From positions 1,550,001 to 1,614,000 of the forward strand of contig NZ_CP102099.1 of assembly GCF_024582815.1 (NCBI RefSeq): a stretch of DNA of 64,000 bases. The letters are read 5' to 3'. Positions within the stretch are counted from its first letter, which is position 1. Every line of letters begins with the position of its first letter. A program made the translations under genes and the position numbers. This document shows, in pieces, positions 6,065-15,289 of this stretch. The DNA is from Acinetobacter colistiniresistens (GTDB lineage: Bacteria; Pseudomonadota; Gammaproteobacteria; Pseudomonadales; Moraxellaceae). The notes beneath the pieces are model-generated. The model was not told where the DNA came from. It saw only the letters and a program-made list of their open reading frames with translations, and searched no databases.

Positions 6065-6100
6065 GCAATAAAAAGCTCACCGAAGTGAGCTTTTTATTGC
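6065..6100. terminator. Perfect 16-bp terminator stem at the end of adeK
   Basis: Arms 6065-6080 and 6085-6100 are exact inverted repeats around a CGAA loop, with T/A tracts at both sides. The adeK stop codon (6094-6096) is inside the right arm. It ends the efflux operon. Confidence 0.85.
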
Positions 6101-7575
6101 AAAAGATAAAAATTATTTTTTGCGTAATGCTGTTGTGAACTAGAAGGCTGATGCGTTATGGTTTCACTGGTCGTCGCTTTTATGCCACCACCCAATGTTT
6201 TATACAGCTCGACTTGGTTGTTCAAGTCTGCTTGTTGTAATAACAATAAACCTTGTTCAGCCGAATAAGCCGAACGTTGCGCATCCAATACCGTTAAATA
6301 GCTATCAATACCTGCACGGAAGCGGGCATTAGAAAGTTTATAGGTGGTATTGGTCGCATCGACTAAACGACGTTGAGCGGTTAAGCGGTCGCCAATGTTG
6401 GCACGCGTCGCCAAAGCATCGTTCACCTCACGGAAAGCCGACTGTACTGACTTTTCATAGTTAGCCAGTGCAATTTTTTGATCGGTTTCAGAGATCTTGA
6501 TATTGGCTTTACGTGTACCCCAGTCAAAAATTGGAATATTTAAGCTAGGTCCGATTGACCATGCGCCATGACCAGCCTTGAACAGATCACTTAAATCAGT
6601 TGAGGCATAACCCGCAGAACCGGTTAAGCTAATGGTTGGGAACAATTGCGCTTTAGCAGCACCAATATTCGCTCCTGCAGCACTTAATTGGTATTCAGAA
6701 GCTTTAACATCAGGACGGTTGTTGAGCAAATCACTTGGTAAACCTGCACTTAAAGCACCTTTTTGGGTAATGCGTGCGACCTGTTGTTGTGGCAACAAGT
6801 TTTGAGGCACTTGCTGACCCACAAGTAAGTTCAACAGGTTTTGTGCCTGTGCGACTTGGGTTTTGTAATTTGCAACATCGTTACGGGCAGTCTCTACTGA
6901 AATCTGTGCCTGACGCACTGGGATTTCACTATCAATACCAACATCGAAACGTTTCTTGTTTAAGTTAAACGAATCTTGTTGAGCTTTCAGCGTCTGATCA
7001 GCCAATTTTAAATGTGCATTGGCATAAGAATAGTTTAACCAAGCTTGAGTCACTTGACTGATCAAGCTGATTTGCGTTGCATCACGTGAGCTCTGCGTTG
7101 CAAGATAGCTATCCAAAGCTGCATCTTTCAAGCTACGTACACGACCCCAGAAATCCAACTCATATGCAGTAAGGCCTAAGCCGACTTGATACGTTGAATA
7201 TGGATTATTTGGGTTCACATTTGGAGAAACTTGACGAACCGCACTGCCACTTGCACCAATCGTTGGTAATTGGTTGTTTTCCGAAATTTGGTATTGCTGT
7301 TGCGCTTTTTGAATATTCAAAGCCGCAGTACGTAAATCACGGTTATTGGCAAGCGCCAGATCAATCACTTGCAGTAAACGTTGATCAGCAAAGAAATCTT
7401 TGTAACCTTGTTCTGCGATTGATTTTCCAGAAGCATTACCATAAGACGCGTAGCTTTCAGGAATATCTGAGCTTACAACAGGCTCTGGCCCGCGCATGCT
7501 TTGGCAGGCAGCCAAAGACAGCGCGAGTGCAGAGATTGCAATGCCACGACCGGAAATAGACCATACAGTTTGCAT
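6094..7575 (-). CDS. adeK: Outer-membrane efflux channel AdeK (OprM/TolC-like lipoprotein)
   Basis: Outer-membrane factor of the AdeIJK tripartite pump, forming the trimeric exit duct. The protein has 493 residues from ATG 7575; GGAG lies 11 bases upstream and a TTG at 7584 is the alternative. A lipoprotein signal peptide ends in LSLAAC, so the mature protein is acylated at Cys. Two OEP repeats follow, with ELDFWGRVRSLKDAAL in the first half and IPIFDWGTRKANIKISE and NDALATRANIGDRL in the second. The start lies 5 bases after the adeJ stop. The residue-level resemblance to A. baumannii AdeK is strong from memory. Confidence 0.94.
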   Translation of the reverse strand: MQTVWSISGRGIAISALALSLAACQSMRGPEPVVSSDIPESYASYGNASGKSIAEQGYKDFFADQRLLQVIDLALANNRDLRTAALNIQKAQQQYQISENNQLPTIGASGSAVRQVSPNVNPNNPYSTYQVGLGLTAYELDFWGRVRSLKDAALDSYLATQSSRDATQISLISQVTQAWLNYSYANAHLKLADQTLKAQQDSFNLNKKRFDVGIDSEIPVRQAQISVETARNDVANYKTQVAQAQNLLNLLVGQQVPQNLLPQQQVARITQKGALSAGLPSDLLNNRPDVKASEYQLSAAGANIGAAKAQLFPTISLTGSAGYASTDLSDLFKAGHGAWSIGPSLNIPIFDWGTRKANIKISETDQKIALANYEKSVQSAFREVNDALATRANIGDRLTAQRRLVDATNTTYKLSNARFRAGIDSYLTVLDAQRSAYSAEQGLLLLQQADLNNQVELYKTLGGGIKATTSETITHQPSSSQQHYAKNNFYLLQ

Positions 7576-7580
7576 CACGA

Positions 7581-10500
7581 TCAATGCTCCTGATTATTTA
7601 AAGTTTTAGGTTTGTACTTAAAGATACTACGAATCCACACGAAGAATACAGGGATGAAGAAAATACCTAAAAGTGTTGATGAGAGTACACCACCGAGTAC
7701 ACCATAACCGACTGAGTGTTGGCTAGCTGCACCAGCGCCACTTGAAAGGGCTAATGGTAAAACACCTAAACCGAATGCAAGTGTGGTCATGATAATTGGA
7801 CGTAAACGCATTTTTGCAGCATGTAAAGTTGCTTCAAAAAGCTCCTCACCTTGTTCCTGTAATTCTTTTGCGAATTCTACGATCAAGATCGCATTCTTCG
7901 CAGATAGACCAATTACAGCGACAAGTGCGACTTGGAAGTAAATGTTAAAGGATAAGTTTGGATCACCTTTAATCGTCATCCCTAACCATGTCAAAGCAAA
8001 GGCACCAATAATACCTAAAGGTACAACCAGTATGACAGACACAGGGACTGACCAGCTTTCATATAATGCAGCAAGACACAGGAATACGATGAGTAAAGAA
8101 AGAACTAATAGTGGACCTTTCTGGTCACCAGAATCACGTTCTTCTAACGATAAGCCGGTCCATTCATAGTCAAAACCAGTTAAGCCCATAGAGGGTAACT
8201 TACCTACGATTTCTTCCATGGCTAACATTGCATCACCAGAGCTAACACCTCTTGCCGGTGTACCTTGGATGTTGACAGATGATACGCCGTTATAACGCTC
8301 TAAACGAGGAGAACCATAGGTCCATTCACCTTTGGCGAATCCAGAAAATGGAACCATCTCACCTTTATTGTTGCGGACATACCACTTGTTTAGGTCTTCA
8401 GGCATCATACGGGTATCCGCTTCACCTTGGACATAAACTTTTTTCACACGACCGCGGTCAACGAAGTCATTGATATATGAACCACCCCAAGCCATGCTCA
8501 TGGTGCTATTAATATCTGCAATACTGACACCCATTGCACCTGCTTGCGCTTGATCAATGGTGATTTGATATTGTGGTGTATCTTCTTGACCATTTGGACG
8601 AACACCTGCAAGACGTTTATCTTGTGATGCCATACCTAGAATAGCATTACGTGCAGCAATCAGCTTTTCATGGCCTTGACCACTTGCATCTTTTAACTGA
8701 AGATCAAAGCCCGAAGCCACACCCAATTCAGGCATTGCTGGTAGCTGTAGTGGCATGATGTAAGACGCATCTTTCACAATCATGTTCAATGCCATACCAC
8801 GTTGAATGATGGCACCAATCTGTGATTCTGGTGTTTTACGTTCACTCCAGTCTTTCAACTTAATGAAGGCTAGACCTGCGTTTTGCCCCACCCCTGTAAA
8901 TGAGAAGCCAGAAACTGTAAAGATTGACTCTACATGTTCTTTTTCCTTATGTAGGAAGTAGTCGGTCATTGTGCTGATGACTTTGTCGGTACGCTCCAAG
9001 CTTGCACTTGGTGGTAATTGCACCAATGTCATGACCACACCTTGGTCTTCATCTGGTAAGAATGAAGTTGGTAGCATTTTGTATAAACCAACGATACCGA
9101 CAAAAGTAGCAAGGTAAATTACCAGAGAAAAAATCCAATGGTGAGTCATACGATTCACACCATTTTTATATTTTTCTGAAACCTTTTCAAAGCTACTGTT
9201 AAACCAACGGAAGAAACGCGCAAAAATATTGTTGCTTTCTGGCTGGTTTGGATCGTGTTGTTTTAACAAGGTCGCACATAGGGCAGGGGTAAAGGTTAAA
9301 GCAATGAGTAAAGATAAGATCATTGCTGTAACCAAAGTGATCGAGAACTGACGGAAGATGACCCCAGTTGTCCCACTGATGAATGCCATTGGTACGAATA
9401 CAGCTGTTAAAACACTGGTAATACCAACTAAAGCACCCGAGATCTGACTCATTGACTTTTCAGTTGCAGGCACAGGTTCGAGATGCTCTTCCTGCATCAC
9501 CCGTTCAACGTTTTCGACCACAACGATGGCATCATCCACCAACAGACCAATGGCGAGTACCATTGCGAACATGGTGAGGGTGTTGATCGAGAAGCCGAAG
9601 ATATTAATCACGGCAAAAGTACCCAGTACAACCACAGGTACCGCCAGCGTTGGAATAATCGTTGCGCGCCAGTTCTGCAAGAACAGGAACATGACGAGGA
9701 ATACCAAGACCACTGCTTCGATCAGGGTATGTACAACACTTTCAATCGATAAACGAATAAATGGAGTGGTGTCATATGCAAGTTTGTCTTTTAAACCGCT
9801 TGGATAGTTATGACGTAACTCAGATAAACGCTTTTCAACGGCCGCTGCGGTATCTAGGGCGTTGGCACCTGTTGCAAGTTTGATTGCAACACCACCTGCT
9901 GGATTACCATTAAACTTTGAGTCGAATTGATAGTTATCTGAACCAAGTTCAACACGAGCAACATCACCTAAGCGAACTTGTGCACCGCCTGCAGTATTTT
10001 TCAGGAAGATGTTTTTAAATTGTTCAGGTGTTTGCAACATGGTTTGTGCATTGACTGTGGCGTTAAGTACCTGACCCGCAGTTGCTGGTGCGCCACCGAG
10101 CTGACCAACCGCCACTTGCGAGTTTTGGGCACGAATGGCAGTTGCAACATCATTTGGCGTCAAGTTAAAGCTGGTCAGTTTTGCTGGATCCAACCAGATT
10201 CGCATCGCATAAGAGCCACCAAACACTTGGAGTTCACCGACACCAGCTACACGACTGAGTGGCTCAGAAATATTTGAGTTCACATAGTCTTTAATATCTG
10301 ATGCAGAAAGACTGTTATCTGGTGAGTAAAATGCAATAACTTGCATGAAGCTTGCACCAGACTTGGTGACCTTTACCCCTTGACGTTGTACGTCAGCAGG
10401 TAAAAGTGCTGTTGCTGATTGTAGTTTGTTTTGAACCTGAACTTGGGCGATATCTGGATCAACACCTTGTTCGAAGTTTAGGTTAATCGATGCTTGACCA

Positions 10501-10754
10501 TTACCTGCACTGTTTGAAGAAATATAGCGTAAACCGTCCAAACCATTCATTTGTTGTTCAATGATTTGAGTCACGGTATTTTCAACAGTTTGAGCAGATG
10601 CCCCAGGGTAAGTTGCAGAGATTGTTACCGTGGGGGGAGCAATTGTTGGATATTGTGCAACAGGCATTTTTGTCAGCGTGATAATACCCGCCAACATAAT
10701 GACCAGTGCAATCACCCAAGCAAAGATTGGGCGATGGATAAAAAATTGAGCCAT
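7581..10754 (-). CDS. adeJ: RND multidrug efflux transporter AdeJ
   Basis: Inner-membrane proton/drug antiporter of the HAE1/AcrB family, 1057 residues, the full family length. The N-terminus FFIHRPIFAWVIALVIMLAG is TM1. The proton-relay aspartates are in GLLVDDAIVVVENVERVM near residue 407. The second-half TM10 block GLSAKNAILIVEFAKEL carries the conserved lysine. Two large periplasmic porter loops lie between TM1-2 and TM7-8. It sits between the adaptor gene (12 bases upstream) and the channel gene in a single operon. In Acinetobacter AdeIJK exports beta-lactams, chloramphenicol, tetracyclines, fluoroquinolones and other compounds (established for A. baumannii). Confidence 0.96.
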   Translation of the reverse strand: MAQFFIHRPIFAWVIALVIMLAGIITLTKMPVAQYPTIAPPTVTISATYPGASAQTVENTVTQIIEQQMNGLDGLRYISSNSAGNGQASINLNFEQGVDPDIAQVQVQNKLQSATALLPADVQRQGVKVTKSGASFMQVIAFYSPDNSLSASDIKDYVNSNISEPLSRVAGVGELQVFGGSYAMRIWLDPAKLTSFNLTPNDVATAIRAQNSQVAVGQLGGAPATAGQVLNATVNAQTMLQTPEQFKNIFLKNTAGGAQVRLGDVARVELGSDNYQFDSKFNGNPAGGVAIKLATGANALDTAAAVEKRLSELRHNYPSGLKDKLAYDTTPFIRLSIESVVHTLIEAVVLVFLVMFLFLQNWRATIIPTLAVPVVVLGTFAVINIFGFSINTLTMFAMVLAIGLLVDDAIVVVENVERVMQEEHLEPVPATEKSMSQISGALVGITSVLTAVFVPMAFISGTTGVIFRQFSITLVTAMILSLLIALTFTPALCATLLKQHDPNQPESNNIFARFFRWFNSSFEKVSEKYKNGVNRMTHHWIFSLVIYLATFVGIVGLYKMLPTSFLPDEDQGVVMTLVQLPPSASLERTDKVISTMTDYFLHKEKEHVESIFTVSGFSFTGVGQNAGLAFIKLKDWSERKTPESQIGAIIQRGMALNMIVKDASYIMPLQLPAMPELGVASGFDLQLKDASGQGHEKLIAARNAILGMASQDKRLAGVRPNGQEDTPQYQITIDQAQAGAMGVSIADINSTMSMAWGGSYINDFVDRGRVKKVYVQGEADTRMMPEDLNKWYVRNNKGEMVPFSGFAKGEWTYGSPRLERYNGVSSVNIQGTPARGVSSGDAMLAMEEIVGKLPSMGLTGFDYEWTGLSLEERDSGDQKGPLLVLSLLIVFLCLAALYESWSVPVSVILVVPLGIIGAFALTWLGMTIKGDPNLSFNIYFQVALVAVIGLSAKNAILIVEFAKELQEQGEELFEATLHAAKMRLRPIIMTTLAFGLGVLPLALSSGAGAASQHSVGYGVLGGVLSSTLLGIFFIPVFFVWIRSIFKYKPKTLNNQEH

Positions 10755-10766
10755 GCAATCTACCCC

Positions 10767-12017
10767 TTAAGCTTCTGCAGTTGCTTTTTGTTCAGCTTTT
10801 GGTGAATTGGCTTTTTGTTGTTCAGCTGCTTTTGGCGCTGTATTTTGACCTTCAGCTGCTTTTGGTTGATAAGGTTTGGCAGACACTTCTTGTCCTTCTT
10901 TCACCTTGGCTACACCATCAACAACAACTTTATCACCAGCTTGTAATCCATTAGTTACAATCCAGTCCTGACCTTTTACACCTACGGTTGTAATTGGACG
11001 AGTCTCAATTGTGCCTTTGGCATTGACCACTAAAGCAACGGCTTGACCTGTCGGTAAACGAGATACAGCTGCTTGTGGAATTAGGTATGCGTTTGGCAAA
11101 ACGCCTTGTGAGATTTTAGCCGTTGCATACATCCCTGGTAAGAGCAAGTGGTTTGGATTGGAGAACACTGCCCGTAATGTCACCGTACCTGTATCTGGGT
11201 TTACACTGGCGTCAGAGAAAGCCAATTGACCTTCAACTGGGTATTCTGAACCATCTTCAAGCGTGATCTTGACACGGGTATTGTTGCTGTTGTTTAAACT
11301 GCCTTTGCTTAACTGTTGGCGTAGACGCAGTAATTCAGCACTCGATTGATTGATATCAACATAGATTGGATCAAGTTGTTGAATTGTCACCAAAGGATCT
11401 GCTTGATTTGCAGTGACCAATGCACCTGGCGTCACCGAAGAACGGCTAGACTGGCCTGAGATAGGCGCGCGAACTGTTGAGTAACCTAAAGTAATTTCTG
11501 CATTTTTCAATGCTGCTTCAGATGCTGCAACATCAGCTTCAGCCAATTTCACTTGCGCATTGATATCATCATATTCCTGTTTAGAAACCGCATTGGTTCC
11601 AACCAGTTGACGATAACGACCTTCTTTCACGCGTAAGGCATTTAAGTTTGCTTGTTGACGCAATAAGGTTGCACGAGCATTGTCTGCTGTGGCACGGTTG
11701 GTATTGGCATCAATTTGATAAAGTGCTTGACCTGCTTGAACGTAGCTACCCTCAGCAAATAATCGTTTTAAGATCACGCCACCAGTTTGTGGACGAACTT
11801 CCGAAACTTGGTATGCTGAGGTTCGCCCTGACAGTTCGACGTTTTGTTCAACACTTTGTGGTTGAGCGACAATGACACCCACTTCTGGAGGCGGCATTTT
11901 TTGGGCAGCAGCAGCTTGCTGTGCATTTTTAGGGTCTTTGCTACAACCAACAAGCGCAATGCTTGTTGCTAATGCGCAAGCAGTTAGGGCAGGAGCCCAA
12001 AGCTTAGCCGACATCAT
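10767..12017 (-). CDS. adeI: Efflux periplasmic adaptor AdeI (membrane-fusion protein)
   Basis: Periplasmic adaptor linking AdeJ to AdeK, 416 residues. The lipoprotein signal ends in ALVGC near residue 25. Then come the split lipoyl domain (SEVRPQTGGVILKRLFAEGSYV), a helical hairpin (about residues 105-175), the second lipoyl half (GYSTVRAPISGQ) and beta-barrel/membrane-proximal domains. The C-terminal tail is a low-complexity Ala/Lys/Gln stretch of about 35 residues. The start ATG 12017 follows GAGGTGG. The gene begins 14 bases before the end of the upstream pap2 reading frame, implying coupling. Confidence 0.95.
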   Translation of the reverse strand: MMSAKLWAPALTACALATSIALVGCSKDPKNAQQAAAAQKMPPPEVGVIVAQPQSVEQNVELSGRTSAYQVSEVRPQTGGVILKRLFAEGSYVQAGQALYQIDANTNRATADNARATLLRQQANLNALRVKEGRYRQLVGTNAVSKQEYDDINAQVKLAEADVAASEAALKNAEITLGYSTVRAPISGQSSRSSVTPGALVTANQADPLVTIQQLDPIYVDINQSSAELLRLRQQLSKGSLNNSNNTRVKITLEDGSEYPVEGQLAFSDASVNPDTGTVTLRAVFSNPNHLLLPGMYATAKISQGVLPNAYLIPQAAVSRLPTGQAVALVVNAKGTIETRPITTVGVKGQDWIVTNGLQAGDKVVVDGVAKVKEGQEVSAKPYQPKAAEGQNTAPKAAEQQKANSPKAEQKATAEA

Positions 12018-12653
12018 TATTCCACCTCAATTTAGATTTTTTATCTAAAAACAAATTGTTGCTGAAAGTGCTTTGATACAGCCAAAACCAAAGCAACGAA
12101 GTCCAAATCAACCCAATTCCCCAACCGGCAAGTACGTCAGTTGGGTAGTGAACCCCAGCGTAAACTCTAGATATCCCCATGAAGATAAACCATAAAGTAG
12201 ATACTAAAATGACACTGTTGCGATGTTTATATTGTTGACACAACAATATGGCTAAACTCGCAAGGGTTGCAGCATAAAGGCTATGGGCACTTGGGAAGGA
12301 TGCGCCATAACTTTGAACCAAGTGATAAAACTCCATTGGTCTTGGCCGATCAATACTCCATTTCAGAACCCAACCAATCGCAATACTGCCACTCACACTA
12401 AAAGAGATAAATATCAAATTTTTATAATTTTTAATCCAAGTTTGGTAAAGACACAAAAATGTGGTTAAAAATAGTAAAAAGGCATCCCACCGAGTCTGGA
12501 AAGCAGAATTGTTACATGATTAAGCGTAAATGAACGGTGCTCAAAAAAAGCTTGAACACTCAAAAGATCTAAAGTTGATGCGTTGGGATTGATTAATCCA
12601 ATCACACCAAGTCCTAAAAAAAAGCAACCAATACAAAGCAATAGGTAAGGCAT
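12004..12653 (-). pseudogene. PAP2-family phosphatase gene split by a one-base frameshift
   Basis: Two overlapping frames together encode one membrane phosphatidic-acid-phosphatase-type protein. The 5' frame (12465-12653, MPYLLLCIGCFFLGLGVIG...) stops soon after RLGGMPF. The 3' frame continues with FLCLYQTWIKNY and carries all three family motifs: KWSIDRPRP, FPSAHS, and SRVYAGVHYPTD. Adding one base to the five-A run at 12476-12480 (T5 on the coding strand) joins them as PFLLFLTTFLCLYQ, giving about 215 residues. It may be a true mutation, a slippage site or a sequencing error. It lies between the efflux promoter and adeI and overlaps adeI by 14 bases. Confidence 0.85.
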
Positions 12654-12702
12654 CCGCTACTCATTTTTTGCTTAACCGATGTTTAGGGGTGTTGAGTGTT
12701 TG

Positions 12703-12733
12703 AAAGTGTACTCGCGAGTACACTTTTGGTCAA
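12703..12733 (-). promoter_or_regulatory. pap2-adeIJK promoter with palindromic operator
   Basis: On the minus strand a -35 box TTGACC (12733-12728), a 17-base spacer and a -10 box TACACT (12710-12705) lie about 50 bases upstream of the pap2 start. A perfect 24-bp palindrome (12703-12726; half-site AAAGTGTACTCG) covers the -10 box and all but one base of the spacer. This is the classical place for a repressor operator. In A. baumannii adeIJK is repressed by the TetR-type protein AdeN, encoded elsewhere, which makes an AdeN-like regulator the leading candidate. Binding is inferred. Confidence 0.75.
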
Positions 12734-12734
12734 G

Positions 12735-13240
12735 TCTTGAAATTTTATGATAATTTCATTTCTATGTTTTTTAAGATGTAGTAAAAAACATAACAAAATT
12801 TGATGTATATCTCATTTTTACTTTGATCTTTTCATCTGTTAAAAGAGGTTCTACTTATCATAAATGCTCTAGTTAATATTGTAGAGGATCTTCTAAAGGT
12901 GTAATTCAACCCAATTAGAACATATAGATTTATATCGACTTTTAGGCTTCAAGTACAGTATTTAGAAATGAAGTACTAATTATTTGTTAACAGTGTCAGG
13001 TTACTAACCAAGCGGGGAAATGAGCTGGTATAACTTAAATCTTTCCATTTCTTTTGAGAGACGTAGGCGTTGAGGTCATAGTCTCTCCTGATCATAGGCG
13101 ATACCGTGACAGAGCAGAGGTCTATTGATTAATAGATGTAGGGAATACCAATCCATTTAAACTATTTTTTGGTTGGCTGATTATGCGCAAAAATAGTTCA
13201 AAGGTTAGACTTTTACTTTGAGGTCTTTGTCTGTAAAAGC
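12735..13240. other. Gene-free region with several hairpins
   Basis: About 500 bases between the efflux promoter and the end of the Gcr-type gene. No reading frame with a ribosome-binding site was seen. The right half contains inverted repeats: GAGAGAC 13056-13062 with GTCTCTC 13081-13087, CTATT/AATAG near 13112-13126, and AACTATTTTT 13160-13169 with AAAAATAGTT 13189-13198. It could hold an unannotated small RNA or a decayed element. Confidence 0.4.
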
Positions 13241-15289
13241 TTAGTGGGGTGTTGGACTATTTTTGCTTTGCTCTTCAACCTCGACCGGTTGCTTTGGAGG
13301 CCAGAAAAAATCACTTGGTCGCGTGAGAAAGTGGGTGGTTACTAATTTTGCTAAGGGCTTCCATTGTGCAAAACGCACACGTCGTGCACGAAGTGCAACA
13401 ATAATGGTCAAGGTAAAGCTAACAAATAAGTTGGTTAAACCAATCAGCATCACACCAAGAAATGAGACTAAAATCAAACCAATGTCAGGACTGCCAATGG
13501 TCATTAAACCTTGAATAAAGTTTGCTGAAGCAAAGGCGATGTGACGAATATCTAAAGGCAAGCCTAAAATAAATCCAATGGTTCCCATGCTGCCAAGCAT
13601 AATCCCGAACAGAAAGTTACCAGCCAATGCCCCGAGATTGGTTTCGATATAATTGGCAAACTTGTCTAAGCGTTTTTGCCCCATCCAGCGTTTTAGGCTT
13701 CGATGCTGTTTTAAGCGAGGACCGACTTTACGGTAGACTGCCAAGTTATCGAAATAACCTGCAATTAGACCAGAGAAGAATAAGCACACACCAGCAATTG
13801 CCGCATGTGGAACAGCTAAAGAGGTGAATGGATTCAGGCTGTGTAAGAGTGTGGCCGATTTGGCATGACTGAGTAAAGGTTCGCCCAAATTGTATTGCCA
13901 TAAATAGGTAATTAATGCTGCAGTTGGGATGGCAATCGAGATATTGCCTAAAATGGCGATGAACTGGGTTCGGATAATATTAATAATCAATGCGGCCAGT
14001 TCTGCAATCTGTGCGGTTTTGCTGCCTTTTTGTTGCTGTACGGTTGAAGCCAGAGCGGCTGCAGTCATGGCTGGCTGCTTGGTGGCAACGGTAAAGTGCA
14101 ACACATGAATCAGCATAAAACCAAGCGCATAGTTCATGCTGTATAAAAAAGCATGACCAAACGGCGCCAGTACCAAACGGGCTGTTAAAATCTTGAGTGT
14201 TGCCATGGTGGCAATAATCGCACCAGCACCAGCGGCTGCTTTATACATGCCAAAGAAGCCGGCTTTGTCTGTACTTACGTAATGTTCACCTGTTTTACTG
14301 GCATTTTCCGTCACCTGTAAGGCAATTAACTCACTGGTTGAGGTGAGTAAATGACGGACACTTTTCTCATTATAATGCGCTTTGGTTAAGTCAGTGATTA
14401 ACTCACCTAATGCCGTGTATCGAGCGTCATTCTTGCTGGCCAGTAAGGTCAGTAACAGTTCGATACGGTCAATGGCTTGCTCTAGTAGCGACAATAAATA
14501 GGTCAGACTGATACTGACACCAATCCGTTTAGTGGCACGGCGAATTTTCAGTACGACTTCACGACATTGATCCAGCATTACAAAGGCTTGAGAGGCATCT
14601 GGTGGCGGTAAAACTGCAACCGCATCTTGGTCATCAATCTGTTTTTTATATTTTTCAATGAACTCTACAATTTCTCGGTTTTGTACCAGAAAAGGAGATT
14701 CATATTCCGTAATATCGGGTTGTGCATTGATAAATTCAGGATATAAGCCGATCCCACTGATCCGATAAGATAGTACCGTAATGGCTTTAATGAGCTCATT
14801 CTTTGAAATCTGTTTTTCAGTAGTATTGCTTTGACTTTCACCTAACAGGTTAAAGAGCGTAATCCAGTCCTGATTGTCAATCAGATCGAGCCATTCACTG
14901 TCATTTTCCTGATGAAAGACTTTCCCAATCAAGGTTTTGAGTTGTTGGCCATCTTCGACTAAAGGAAGGAAATGTGCGCCTAAACGTTGTCCTAACTGAT
15001 TCCAGAAGCCATCCAGCGAGAGAATGCCGCTATCGGCATATAAACTAATCTGTTTATATTGGCTGATCAGTTTCAGTAAAAAATTCTGTACGAGAATTGC
15101 TGATGTTGGTGTCAGCAATAATATTTTGATCAACGCATGAATACGTTGTTTGACTTCATCTGCATCATTGGAATTTTTGGGGCGTATCCGATTGACCAGT
15201 TCAATCAGCAGTTGTTCATCAAGAACAGCTTGAGGTTGATCAAGCTGTTCCTGCATTTTTAAAAAAAGATCAGATACAGTTAATTGCAT
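13241..15289 (-). CDS. Gcr-type 'site-specific recombinase' family membrane protein (PF10136-like)
   Basis: A 682-residue protein: a long helical cytoplasmic N-terminal half (about 1-330), then several membrane segments (for example FGMYKAAAGAGAIIATMATL, IAIPTAALITYLWQ, AAIAGVCLFFSGLIAGYF and VSFLGVMLIGLTNLFVSF), and a basic C-terminal tail. The family is named after a gonococcal protein reported in site-specific recombination. The multi-pass membrane architecture makes a direct recombinase role doubtful, and I see no tyrosine- or serine-recombinase catalytic motif. It starts 14 bases after the ispB stop and is probably co-transcribed with it. Confidence 0.8.
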   Translation of the reverse strand: MQLTVSDLFLKMQEQLDQPQAVLDEQLLIELVNRIRPKNSNDADEVKQRIHALIKILLLTPTSAILVQNFLLKLISQYKQISLYADSGILSLDGFWNQLGQRLGAHFLPLVEDGQQLKTLIGKVFHQENDSEWLDLIDNQDWITLFNLLGESQSNTTEKQISKNELIKAITVLSYRISGIGLYPEFINAQPDITEYESPFLVQNREIVEFIEKYKKQIDDQDAVAVLPPPDASQAFVMLDQCREVVLKIRRATKRIGVSISLTYLLSLLEQAIDRIELLLTLLASKNDARYTALGELITDLTKAHYNEKSVRHLLTSTSELIALQVTENASKTGEHYVSTDKAGFFGMYKAAAGAGAIIATMATLKILTARLVLAPFGHAFLYSMNYALGFMLIHVLHFTVATKQPAMTAAALASTVQQQKGSKTAQIAELAALIINIIRTQFIAILGNISIAIPTAALITYLWQYNLGEPLLSHAKSATLLHSLNPFTSLAVPHAAIAGVCLFFSGLIAGYFDNLAVYRKVGPRLKQHRSLKRWMGQKRLDKFANYIETNLGALAGNFLFGIMLGSMGTIGFILGLPLDIRHIAFASANFIQGLMTIGSPDIGLILVSFLGVMLIGLTNLFVSFTLTIIVALRARRVRFAQWKPLAKLVTTHFLTRPSDFFWPPKQPVEVEEQSKNSPTPH

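What the first reader, a model, noticed from the sequence alone, without database searches (positions are those of the whole stretch)
12703..12733. Perfect 24-bp palindrome fills the efflux-operon promoter
The sequence shows TTGACC-17-TACACT upstream of pap2-adeIJK, and a perfect palindrome with half-site AAAGTGTACTCG covers the spacer and -10. AdeIJK in A. baumannii is repressed by the TetR protein AdeN (established). This site is therefore a strong candidate operator for an AdeN orthologue. It also implies that pap2 and adeIJK are one transcript and that pap2 is drug-efflux co-regulated.
Basis: partly seen in the sequence, partly recalled or inferred. Interest (0 to 1): 0.7.

Follow-up and report, generated by a model that had tools for sequence, protein, structure and literature searches.

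The report
Conserved operator of a multidrug-pump operon
A perfect mirror-image DNA site fills the promoter of a drug-efflux operon in this Acinetobacter genome, is kept almost unchanged across the genus, and is most likely where the pump's repressor AdeN binds, about 650 bases away from where one published survey placed that site.

Summary
A perfect 24-bp palindrome at 12703-12726 overlaps TTGACC-17-TACACT on the minus strand, upstream of pap2-adeIJK. It is the longest perfect palindrome in the window and single-copy in the genome. The core AGTGTACT-N4-AGTACACT (at most 1 mismatch) is in 172 of 175 Acinetobacter genomes, and upstream of adeI in all 80 named relatives kept. Arms and the -35 CTTGA are near-invariant; flanks drift.

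I identified the unlinked adeN orthologue. Outside Acinetobacter the same core (10 fixed bases, at most 1 mismatch) lies within 500 bp upstream of adeN in 12 of 14 genomes (6 of 6 genera), and in 6 of these also upstream of adeI. This ties the site to AdeN; binding was not tested. In some species extra copies precede emrAB (7 genomes) or a 215-aa membrane protein (8 genomes).

The operator reading is supported; "one transcript" only partly: gene order and close junction are conserved, but one survey maps a promoter just upstream of adeI. That survey's "AdeN operator" (-39 to -12) fits an mRNA hairpin better. That AdeN also regulates pgpB (pap2) is already in print. In this window the pap2 frame is interrupted.

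The parts
12703..12726 (.). perfect 24-bp palindrome, proposed AdeN operator; conserved core AGTGTACT-N4-AGTACACT
12728..12733 (-). -35 hexamer TTGACC; CTTGA invariant in 80 of 80 named relatives
12705..12710 (-). -10 hexamer TACACT, inside the downstream arm of the palindrome; invariant in 80 of 80
12004..12653 (-). pap2 (pgpB-like phosphatase) region, first gene of the operon; frame interrupted here, longest open piece 12004-12456 has the PAP2 domain; full-length frames in 78 of 80 relatives
12031..12049 (-). 7-bp stem hairpin just 5' of the adeI ribosome-binding site; the equivalent place was labelled 'AdeN binding operator' in PMC9161033
10767..12017 (-). adeI orthologue (membrane fusion protein); the pap2 frame ends 14 nt inside it
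7581..10754 (-). adeJ orthologue (RND transporter)
6094..7584 (-). adeK orthologue (outer-membrane channel)

Best explanation
The palindrome is the operator through which the unlinked TetR-family repressor AdeN (gene about 985 kb away in this genome) shuts the main promoter of pap2-adeIJK. A repressor dimer on AGTGTACT-N4-AGTACACT would cover the spacer and the -10 box and abut the -35 box, so it would block RNA polymerase; an inducing ligand (fatty acids have been suggested in print for A. baumannii) would release it. Shown here: site, promoter-like boxes, conservation, adeN orthologue, and the core upstream of adeN in sister genera. Inferred: that AdeN binds it, that binding represses, that transcription starts here, and the ligand.
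For: Core in 172 of 175 Acinetobacter genomes at no more than 1 mismatch, against 7 of 175 for the reversed control pattern. 80 of 80 named loci have it upstream of adeI: 74 exact, 6 with 1 mismatch; 79 at 679-704 bp and one at 394 bp; the best match in the 3 kb from the adeI start onward is 3-6 mismatches. Mean information 1.96 and 1.98 bits per base in the arms and 1.86 in the -35 zone, against 0.64 upstream and 0.35 downstream. A match to AdeN at E<=1e-20 in 174 of 175 genomes; the own protein has all six A. baumannii AdeN residues given in PMC7990795 at a constant offset of 4, the next best of 27 TetR proteins compared (of 28) has three. Outside the genus the core (10 fixed bases, at most 1 mismatch) lies within 500 bp upstream of the AdeN match in 12 of 14 genomes, 6 of 6 genera, against 0 of 26 other TetR genes of the own genome and 44 of 3200 shuffled 500-bp stretches from those loci. 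Six of those genomes also have it upstream of adeI (G183, G185, G189, G197, G207, G215). Site and AdeN co-occur: 8 both, 6 AdeN only, 2 site only, 29 neither of 45. The recognition-helix segment GGSK-[TA]-[SA]-[IV]-Y-[KQ]-YF is shared by the 20 AdeN rows aligned and not by a paralogue.
Against: No binding, footprint or transcript start was measured. In Acinetobacter itself adeN lacks the site: nothing within 3 mismatches in the 30 adeN loci looked at, of 174. Genus-level co-occurrence alone is not significant (4/2/2/7, p=0.14) and genomes of a genus are not independent. G178 and G193 have AdeN, and the core before adeN, but none before their weak AdeI match. G148 has AdeN and AdeI matches and no core within 1.5 kb upstream of adeI. 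A more distant AdeN-like paralogue in genus g10 also has a related motif upstream (L189 at 3, L190 at 4 mismatches, L191 none within 4), so the motif may belong to a small TetR subfamily. PMC9161033 places promoter and operator just upstream of adeI. A. baumannii itself could not be examined by name.
Confidence: 0.82

Rival explanations
1. AdeN acts at the inverted repeat just upstream of adeI (TTTAGAT...ATCTAAA), as annotated in PMC9161033, and the palindrome at 12703-12726 belongs to another regulator of pap2.
For: PMC9161033 Table 2 lists -39 to -12 as AdeN operator by manual inspection, and -35/-10 boxes nearby citing TSS data. TTAGAT-N2-6-ATCTAA lies within 100 bp upstream of adeI in 63 of 80 loci.
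Against: That repeat is in none of the 9 adeI loci examined outside the 80 (seven of other genera, plus G147 and G148) and upstream of none of 15 adeN genes (13 of other genera plus the same two); it is in 1 of 30 Acinetobacter adeN loci (L129). In four genomes of genus g10 nearly the same place holds an unrelated 7-bp stem (GCCAGCA/TGCTGGC) before the ribosome-binding site, as expected of an RNA hairpin. In the window it lies inside the pap2 3' frame.
Confidence: 0.08
2. The site is a real operator of the pap2-adeIJK promoter but its main ligand protein is a TetR-family regulator other than AdeN.
For: The genome holds 28 TetR_N matches; a second AdeN-like paralogue in genus g10 has a related motif upstream.
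Against: The core is upstream of adeN itself in 6 of 6 sister genera with AdeN; none of 26 other TetR genes of the own genome has it in the 500 bp before the TetR_N match; AdeN is called the repressor of adeIJK in A. baumannii in the papers seen.
Confidence: 0.08
3. The palindrome is a chance or structural feature (cruciform, RNA hairpin in a leader) without a dedicated DNA-binding protein.
For: In 2 of 200 random windows the longest palindrome was 24 bp.
Against: Sequence, not just symmetry, is kept: 172 of 175 genomes, near-invariant arms with a drifting centre; it overlaps the promoter boxes, so it would lie mostly upstream of the transcript.
Confidence: 0.02

Closest known systems
AdeN-adeIJK control in Acinetobacter baumannii (Rosenfeld et al. 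2012; not held, known here only through citing papers)
   Same: Same pump operon, orthologue of the same unlinked TetR repressor, same pgpB/pap2 gene in front.
   Different: One printed survey puts the AdeN operator at -39 to -12 of adeI by manual inspection (PMC9161033); the conserved site found here lies 679-704 bp before adeI in 79 of 80 relatives, in front of pap2. Whether Rosenfeld et al. mapped a site I could not see.
NalC (PDB 8ke8) and CmeR (PDB 2qco and others), TetR-family repressors
   Same: NalC is the best, CmeR among the best solved relatives of the AdeN orthologue (E 9e-18 and about 1.5e-13).
   Different: I saw no NalC or CmeR operator sequence, so operators were not compared. 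NalC controls PA3720-armR (PMC3290565, start of abstract in the listing).
TetR-family operators inside a -35/-10 spacer in general (recalled, from no call)
   Same: Palindrome covering spacer and -10, repression by promoter occlusion.
   Different: Repressor gene is unlinked and, in the 30 Acinetobacter adeN loci looked at, not preceded by this motif.

Membership tests
AdeN operator of adeIJK | AdeN orthologue encoded in the same genome | tested here: met
   L003, 213 aa, TetR_N plus TetR_C_7; six diagnostic residues of PMC7990795 all match; 174 of 175 genus genomes have a match
AdeN operator of adeIJK | Palindromic site overlapping the promoter of the adeIJK transcription unit, conserved in relatives | tested here: met
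   80 of 80 loci; promoter boxes are sequence matches, not mapped starts
AdeN operator of adeIJK | Site tracks AdeN outside the genus | tested here: met
   8/6/2/29 of 45 genomes, p=0.0005 uncorrected for kinship; genus level 4/2/2/7, p=0.14; core upstream of adeN in 12 of 14
AdeN operator of adeIJK | AdeN binds the site in vitro | not testable with these tools
   none
AdeN operator of adeIJK | Promoter derepressed without AdeN | not testable with these tools
   print only: adeJ up 5-fold when an insertion lowered adeN expression in A. baumannii (PMC8585491, passage); the site itself was not examined there
pap2-adeIJK as one transcription unit | Same strand, short or overlapping gene junction kept across species | tested here: met
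   78 of 80 loci have a full-length pap2 frame ending between 37 nt before and 14 nt inside adeI
pap2-adeIJK as one transcription unit | No separate adeI promoter | tested here: inconclusive
   PMC9161033 lists -35/-10 boxes at -70 to -41 citing TSS data; the consensus scan of 11980-13240 found no minus-strand match downstream of 12705
TetR-family AdeN subfamily | Shared recognition-helix segment | tested here: met
   20 of 20 rows

The most novel reading that the evidence does not exclude
The true AdeN operator across Acinetobacter is this pap2-proximal palindrome, about 690 bp upstream of adeI and outside the 500 bp surveyed for resistance markers in PMC9161033; the site annotated there is an mRNA hairpin. 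AdeN's ancestral arrangement was autoregulatory (still seen in sister genera) and its regulon has moved between lineages to take in emrAB and an uncharacterised membrane protein beside etfA.
Probability: 0.6. Interest if true: 0.62.

Novelty: new member of a known kind. Interest (0 to 1): 0.5.

Why it matters
AdeIJK is a core multidrug pump of Acinetobacter. If the operator lies in front of pap2, surveys that read only the 500 bp upstream of adeI miss the control site, and variation there would be an unread source of pump dysregulation. It also makes the lipid phosphatase a true first gene of the operon, which fits the printed suggestion that AdeN serves lipid homeostasis (PMC8585491), and it gives a defined 16-base motif with which to predict AdeN targets in Acinetobacter genomes.

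Tried and rejected
Presence or absence of adeN within Acinetobacter could not discriminate, because adeN matches and the site are both near-universal there. My first palindrome scan seemed to show that about a dozen species lacked the site; it picked the most symmetric palindrome rather than the motif, and one search corrected this to 80 of 80. NCBIfam did not name AdeN among the 20 TetR proteins scanned of the 28 found; the identification came from residue positions in PMC7990795. Rfam: no family at or above its gathering score in 11900-13300. Folding of 12840-13245 gave no signal on either strand.

Print: paper searches (full text of the open library only). In the listings and the passages read I saw no gel shift or footprint of AdeN; most of the listed papers were not opened, and Rosenfeld et al. 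2012 and the A. baumannii transcriptome paper are not held. [quoted passage not shown] Four typed strings of the form seen in the A. baumannii complex are in no Acinetobacter paper: 3 unrelated papers hold one short string. A search for the published A. baumannii upstream string gave 0 of 175 genomes, so A. baumannii itself was not verified; the published 28-nt 'operator' string is in 7 of 80 named loci (A. lactucae, A. pittii, A. nosocomialis, A. seifertii), all of which carry the palindrome. The NalC operator sequence was sought in passages of two papers without success. Four plasmid or plasmid-like second copies (G006, G029, G048, G079) are part of a long hairpin beside a terminator-like repeat; I set them aside as probably unrelated.

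Full report
What is there. Window 12703-12726 is a perfect 24-bp palindrome, AAAGTGTACTCGCGAGTACACTTT, the longest perfect palindrome in the 64 kb; in 2 of 200 random first-order windows the longest was as long. It occurs once in the 3.89-Mb genome; no other place matches AAGTGTACT-N4-AGTACACTT within 2 mismatches and one does at 3, where the reversed control pattern has 5 places. On the minus strand TTGACC-17-TACACT overlaps it. Downstream on that strand lie pap2 and the adeI, adeJ and adeK orthologues (Pfam PAP2; HlyD_D23; ACR_tran; OEP). The gene upstream encodes a 682-aa SpecificRecomb protein on the same strand.

Conservation. AdeI relatives were fetched from named species (the best 80 kept of 137). 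All 80 have the core AGTGTACT-N4-AGTACACT upstream, 74 exactly and 6 with one mismatch, 679-704 bp before adeI in 79 and 394 bp in one (L046); the best match in the 3 kb from the adeI start onward is 3-6 mismatches. In the alignment centred on the site the two arms average 1.96 and 1.98 bits per base, CTTGA of the -35 is invariant in 80 of 80, TACACT likewise, the 4-base centre falls to 0.96, and flanks are 0.64 and 0.35. Among 175 Acinetobacter genomes 172 have the core at no more than one mismatch, the reversed control pattern 7. The three without are G147, G148 and the 64% complete G152; G147 has the shorter core GTACT-N4-AGTAC 125 bp before the matched adeI start, G148 has none within 1.5 kb, G152 was not looked at further.

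The repressor. Of 28 TetR_N matches in the genome, L003 (213 aa; C1:2547453-2548091) carries K, P, Q, L, F and M at the A. baumannii AdeN positions 15, 16, 17, 26, 64 and 174 listed in PMC7990795 (passages), all shifted by 4; the next best of the 27 TetR proteins compared has three of six at any offset tried. It is about 985 kb from the operon; PMC7944621 (passages) gives about 800 kb in A. baumannii. 174 of 175 genus genomes have a match at E<=1e-20; the weakest (about 1e-32) may not be orthologues. Its best solved relative is NalC.

Linking site and repressor. Presence within the genus is uninformative, so I went outside it. I searched AdeN in 45 of the 173 non-Acinetobacter genomes: the first 44, which cover all 15 other genera, plus G270, added because it had the site. 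14 have a match at E<=1e-10 (weakest best hit 1.6e-30). Eight have both AdeN and the 16-base core, six AdeN only, two the core only, 29 neither: p=0.0005 ignoring kinship; by genus 4/2/2/7, p=0.14 (whose printed label says E<=1e-30; one genome lies at 1.6e-30). More telling, the 10-base core GTACT-N4-AGTAC with at most one mismatch stands within 500 bp upstream of the AdeN match in 12 of the 14 genomes and in each of the 6 genera, 46-470 bp away (G199 lacks it and G217 had only 121 bp to look at). Controls: 0 of 26 other TetR genes of the own genome in the 500 bp before the TetR_N match, and 44 of 3200 shuffled 500-bp stretches cut from the 16 adeN loci (the stretches were cut at a fixed place, not always upstream). 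AdeI was searched in 10 of the 14 AdeN-bearing genomes. Six (G183, G185, G189, G197, G207, G215) have the 10-base core within 1.5 kb upstream of their best AdeI match, G178 and G193 do not, and G181 and G212 had only 290 and 18 bp to look at; second AdeI-like matches in G215 and G185 have none. The six AdeN-free genomes with an AdeI match have none. The recognition-helix segment of the repressor is shared by the 20 AdeN rows aligned, including G147 and G148, and differs in a paralogue. In Acinetobacter adeN itself has no site within 3 mismatches in the 30 best-scoring loci, so autoregulation through this motif seems absent there.

Operon. 78 of 80 loci have a pap2 frame of 199-228 aa (start codons chosen mechanically); its stop lies 14 nt inside adeI in the largest group and at most 37 nt before it in the rest; L046 and L092 lack a full frame. 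This favours one transcript from the conserved promoter. Print: pgpB is called co-regulated by adeN in PMC6814407 and regulated by adeN in PMC8412936 (passages), and 'cotranscribed' in PMC8585491 in a sentence about AdeN (passage). PMC8262867 (passage) counts insertions in the phosphatase gene or the intergenic region before adeI among mutations apparently upregulating efflux. Against a single promoter, PMC9161033 (section 9 read) lists -35/-10 boxes at -70 to -41 of adeI citing TSS data and an 'AdeN binding operator' at -39 to -12 by manual inspection.

The adeI-proximal repeat. TTAGAT-N2-6-ATCTAA lies within 100 bp before adeI in 63 of 80 loci. It is absent from the 9 adeI loci examined outside the 80 (seven of other genera, plus G147 and G148) and from the 500 bp before 15 adeN genes (L179 was not included); it occurs in 1 of 30 Acinetobacter adeN loci (L129). 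Four genomes of genus g10 have an unrelated 7-bp stem with a 4-base loop at nearly the same place before the ribosome-binding site. Structure kept while sequence changes points to an RNA element, possibly for adeI translation. This is an inference; within Acinetobacter the stem sequence hardly varies, and 16.9% of shuffled stretches also gave a stem of 6 or more Watson-Crick pairs against 71 of 80 real ones.

Other sites. 27 of 175 genomes have more than one core. I fetched the extra sites of all 27 and classified neighbours by tblastn: emrAB-type pump next to a thioesterase gene, 7 genomes (G031, G059, G065, G071, G077, G088, G174); a 215-aa membrane protein beside etfA, 8 genomes (G008, G034, G095, G098, G140, G158, G171, G172); a second pap2-adeIJK copy, 1 (G023); plasmid-like hairpins, 4 (G006, G029, G048, G079); unassigned, 7 (G013, G105, G119, G133, G156, G164, G170) plus one extra site in G158. 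For the membrane protein (matches in 35 of 175 genomes), 9 of 9 close homologues (62-100% identity) have the site 38-74 bp before the match (7 exact, one with 1 and one with 2 mismatches). Of the 26 distant ones 21 were looked at: 20 show nothing within 5 mismatches and one has 5, but two of the 20 (L276, L284) are cut by a contig end so that my stretch was misplaced. The window's genome has no match to this protein.

Mechanism. Most likely AdeN dimers occupy the site, cover the -10 and spacer, and exclude polymerase; a hydrophobic ligand releases them. Fatty acids raise adeJ expression in A. baumannii and were proposed as AdeN ligands (PMC8585491, PMC6428749; passages). Binding, repression at this site and the ligand were not tested here.

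Verdict. A real, strongly conserved operator-like site; AdeN is the best candidate binder. It is a new site of a known kind, interesting because it relocates a clinically watched control element and predicts a wider regulon.

Noticed in passing
window 12004-12653: The pap2 reading frame is interrupted in this genome (longest open piece 150 aa), while 78 of 80 relatives have a full-length frame. Could be real or an assembly error.
   Followed up: partly
window 12734-13240: The gap between the upstream recombinase gene and the promoter is 507 bp here and 404-537 bp in 10 of 80 relatives; the other 70 have 50-149 bp. The extra DNA has no Rfam match and no unusual folding.
   Followed up: partly
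window 12031-12049: Hairpin just before the adeI ribosome-binding site, with an unrelated stem sequence at nearly the same place in genus g10.
   Followed up: partly
L213, L216, L241, L242, L247, L249, L253, L254: An uncharacterised ~215-aa membrane protein beside etfA (L216 copy: no Pfam match at 1e-5, no NCBIfam match at 0.01) is preceded by the same palindrome.
   Followed up: partly
L215, L218, L220, L221, L223, L240, L255: The same palindrome lies between a thioesterase gene and an emrAB-type MFS pump in 7 genomes.
   Followed up: partly
L072 and G023:C2:49474 (L257): A pap2-adeI operon with its palindrome lies on a 177-kb plasmid of A. cumulans (L072 record title); G023 has a second copy on a contig of the same length.
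   Followed up: no
L212:4234, L214:3599, L217:3988, L219:3590: Plasmid-like loci carry the core as part of a long perfect hairpin beside a terminator-like repeat, near ohrR in three of the four; probably unrelated to AdeN.
   Followed up: no
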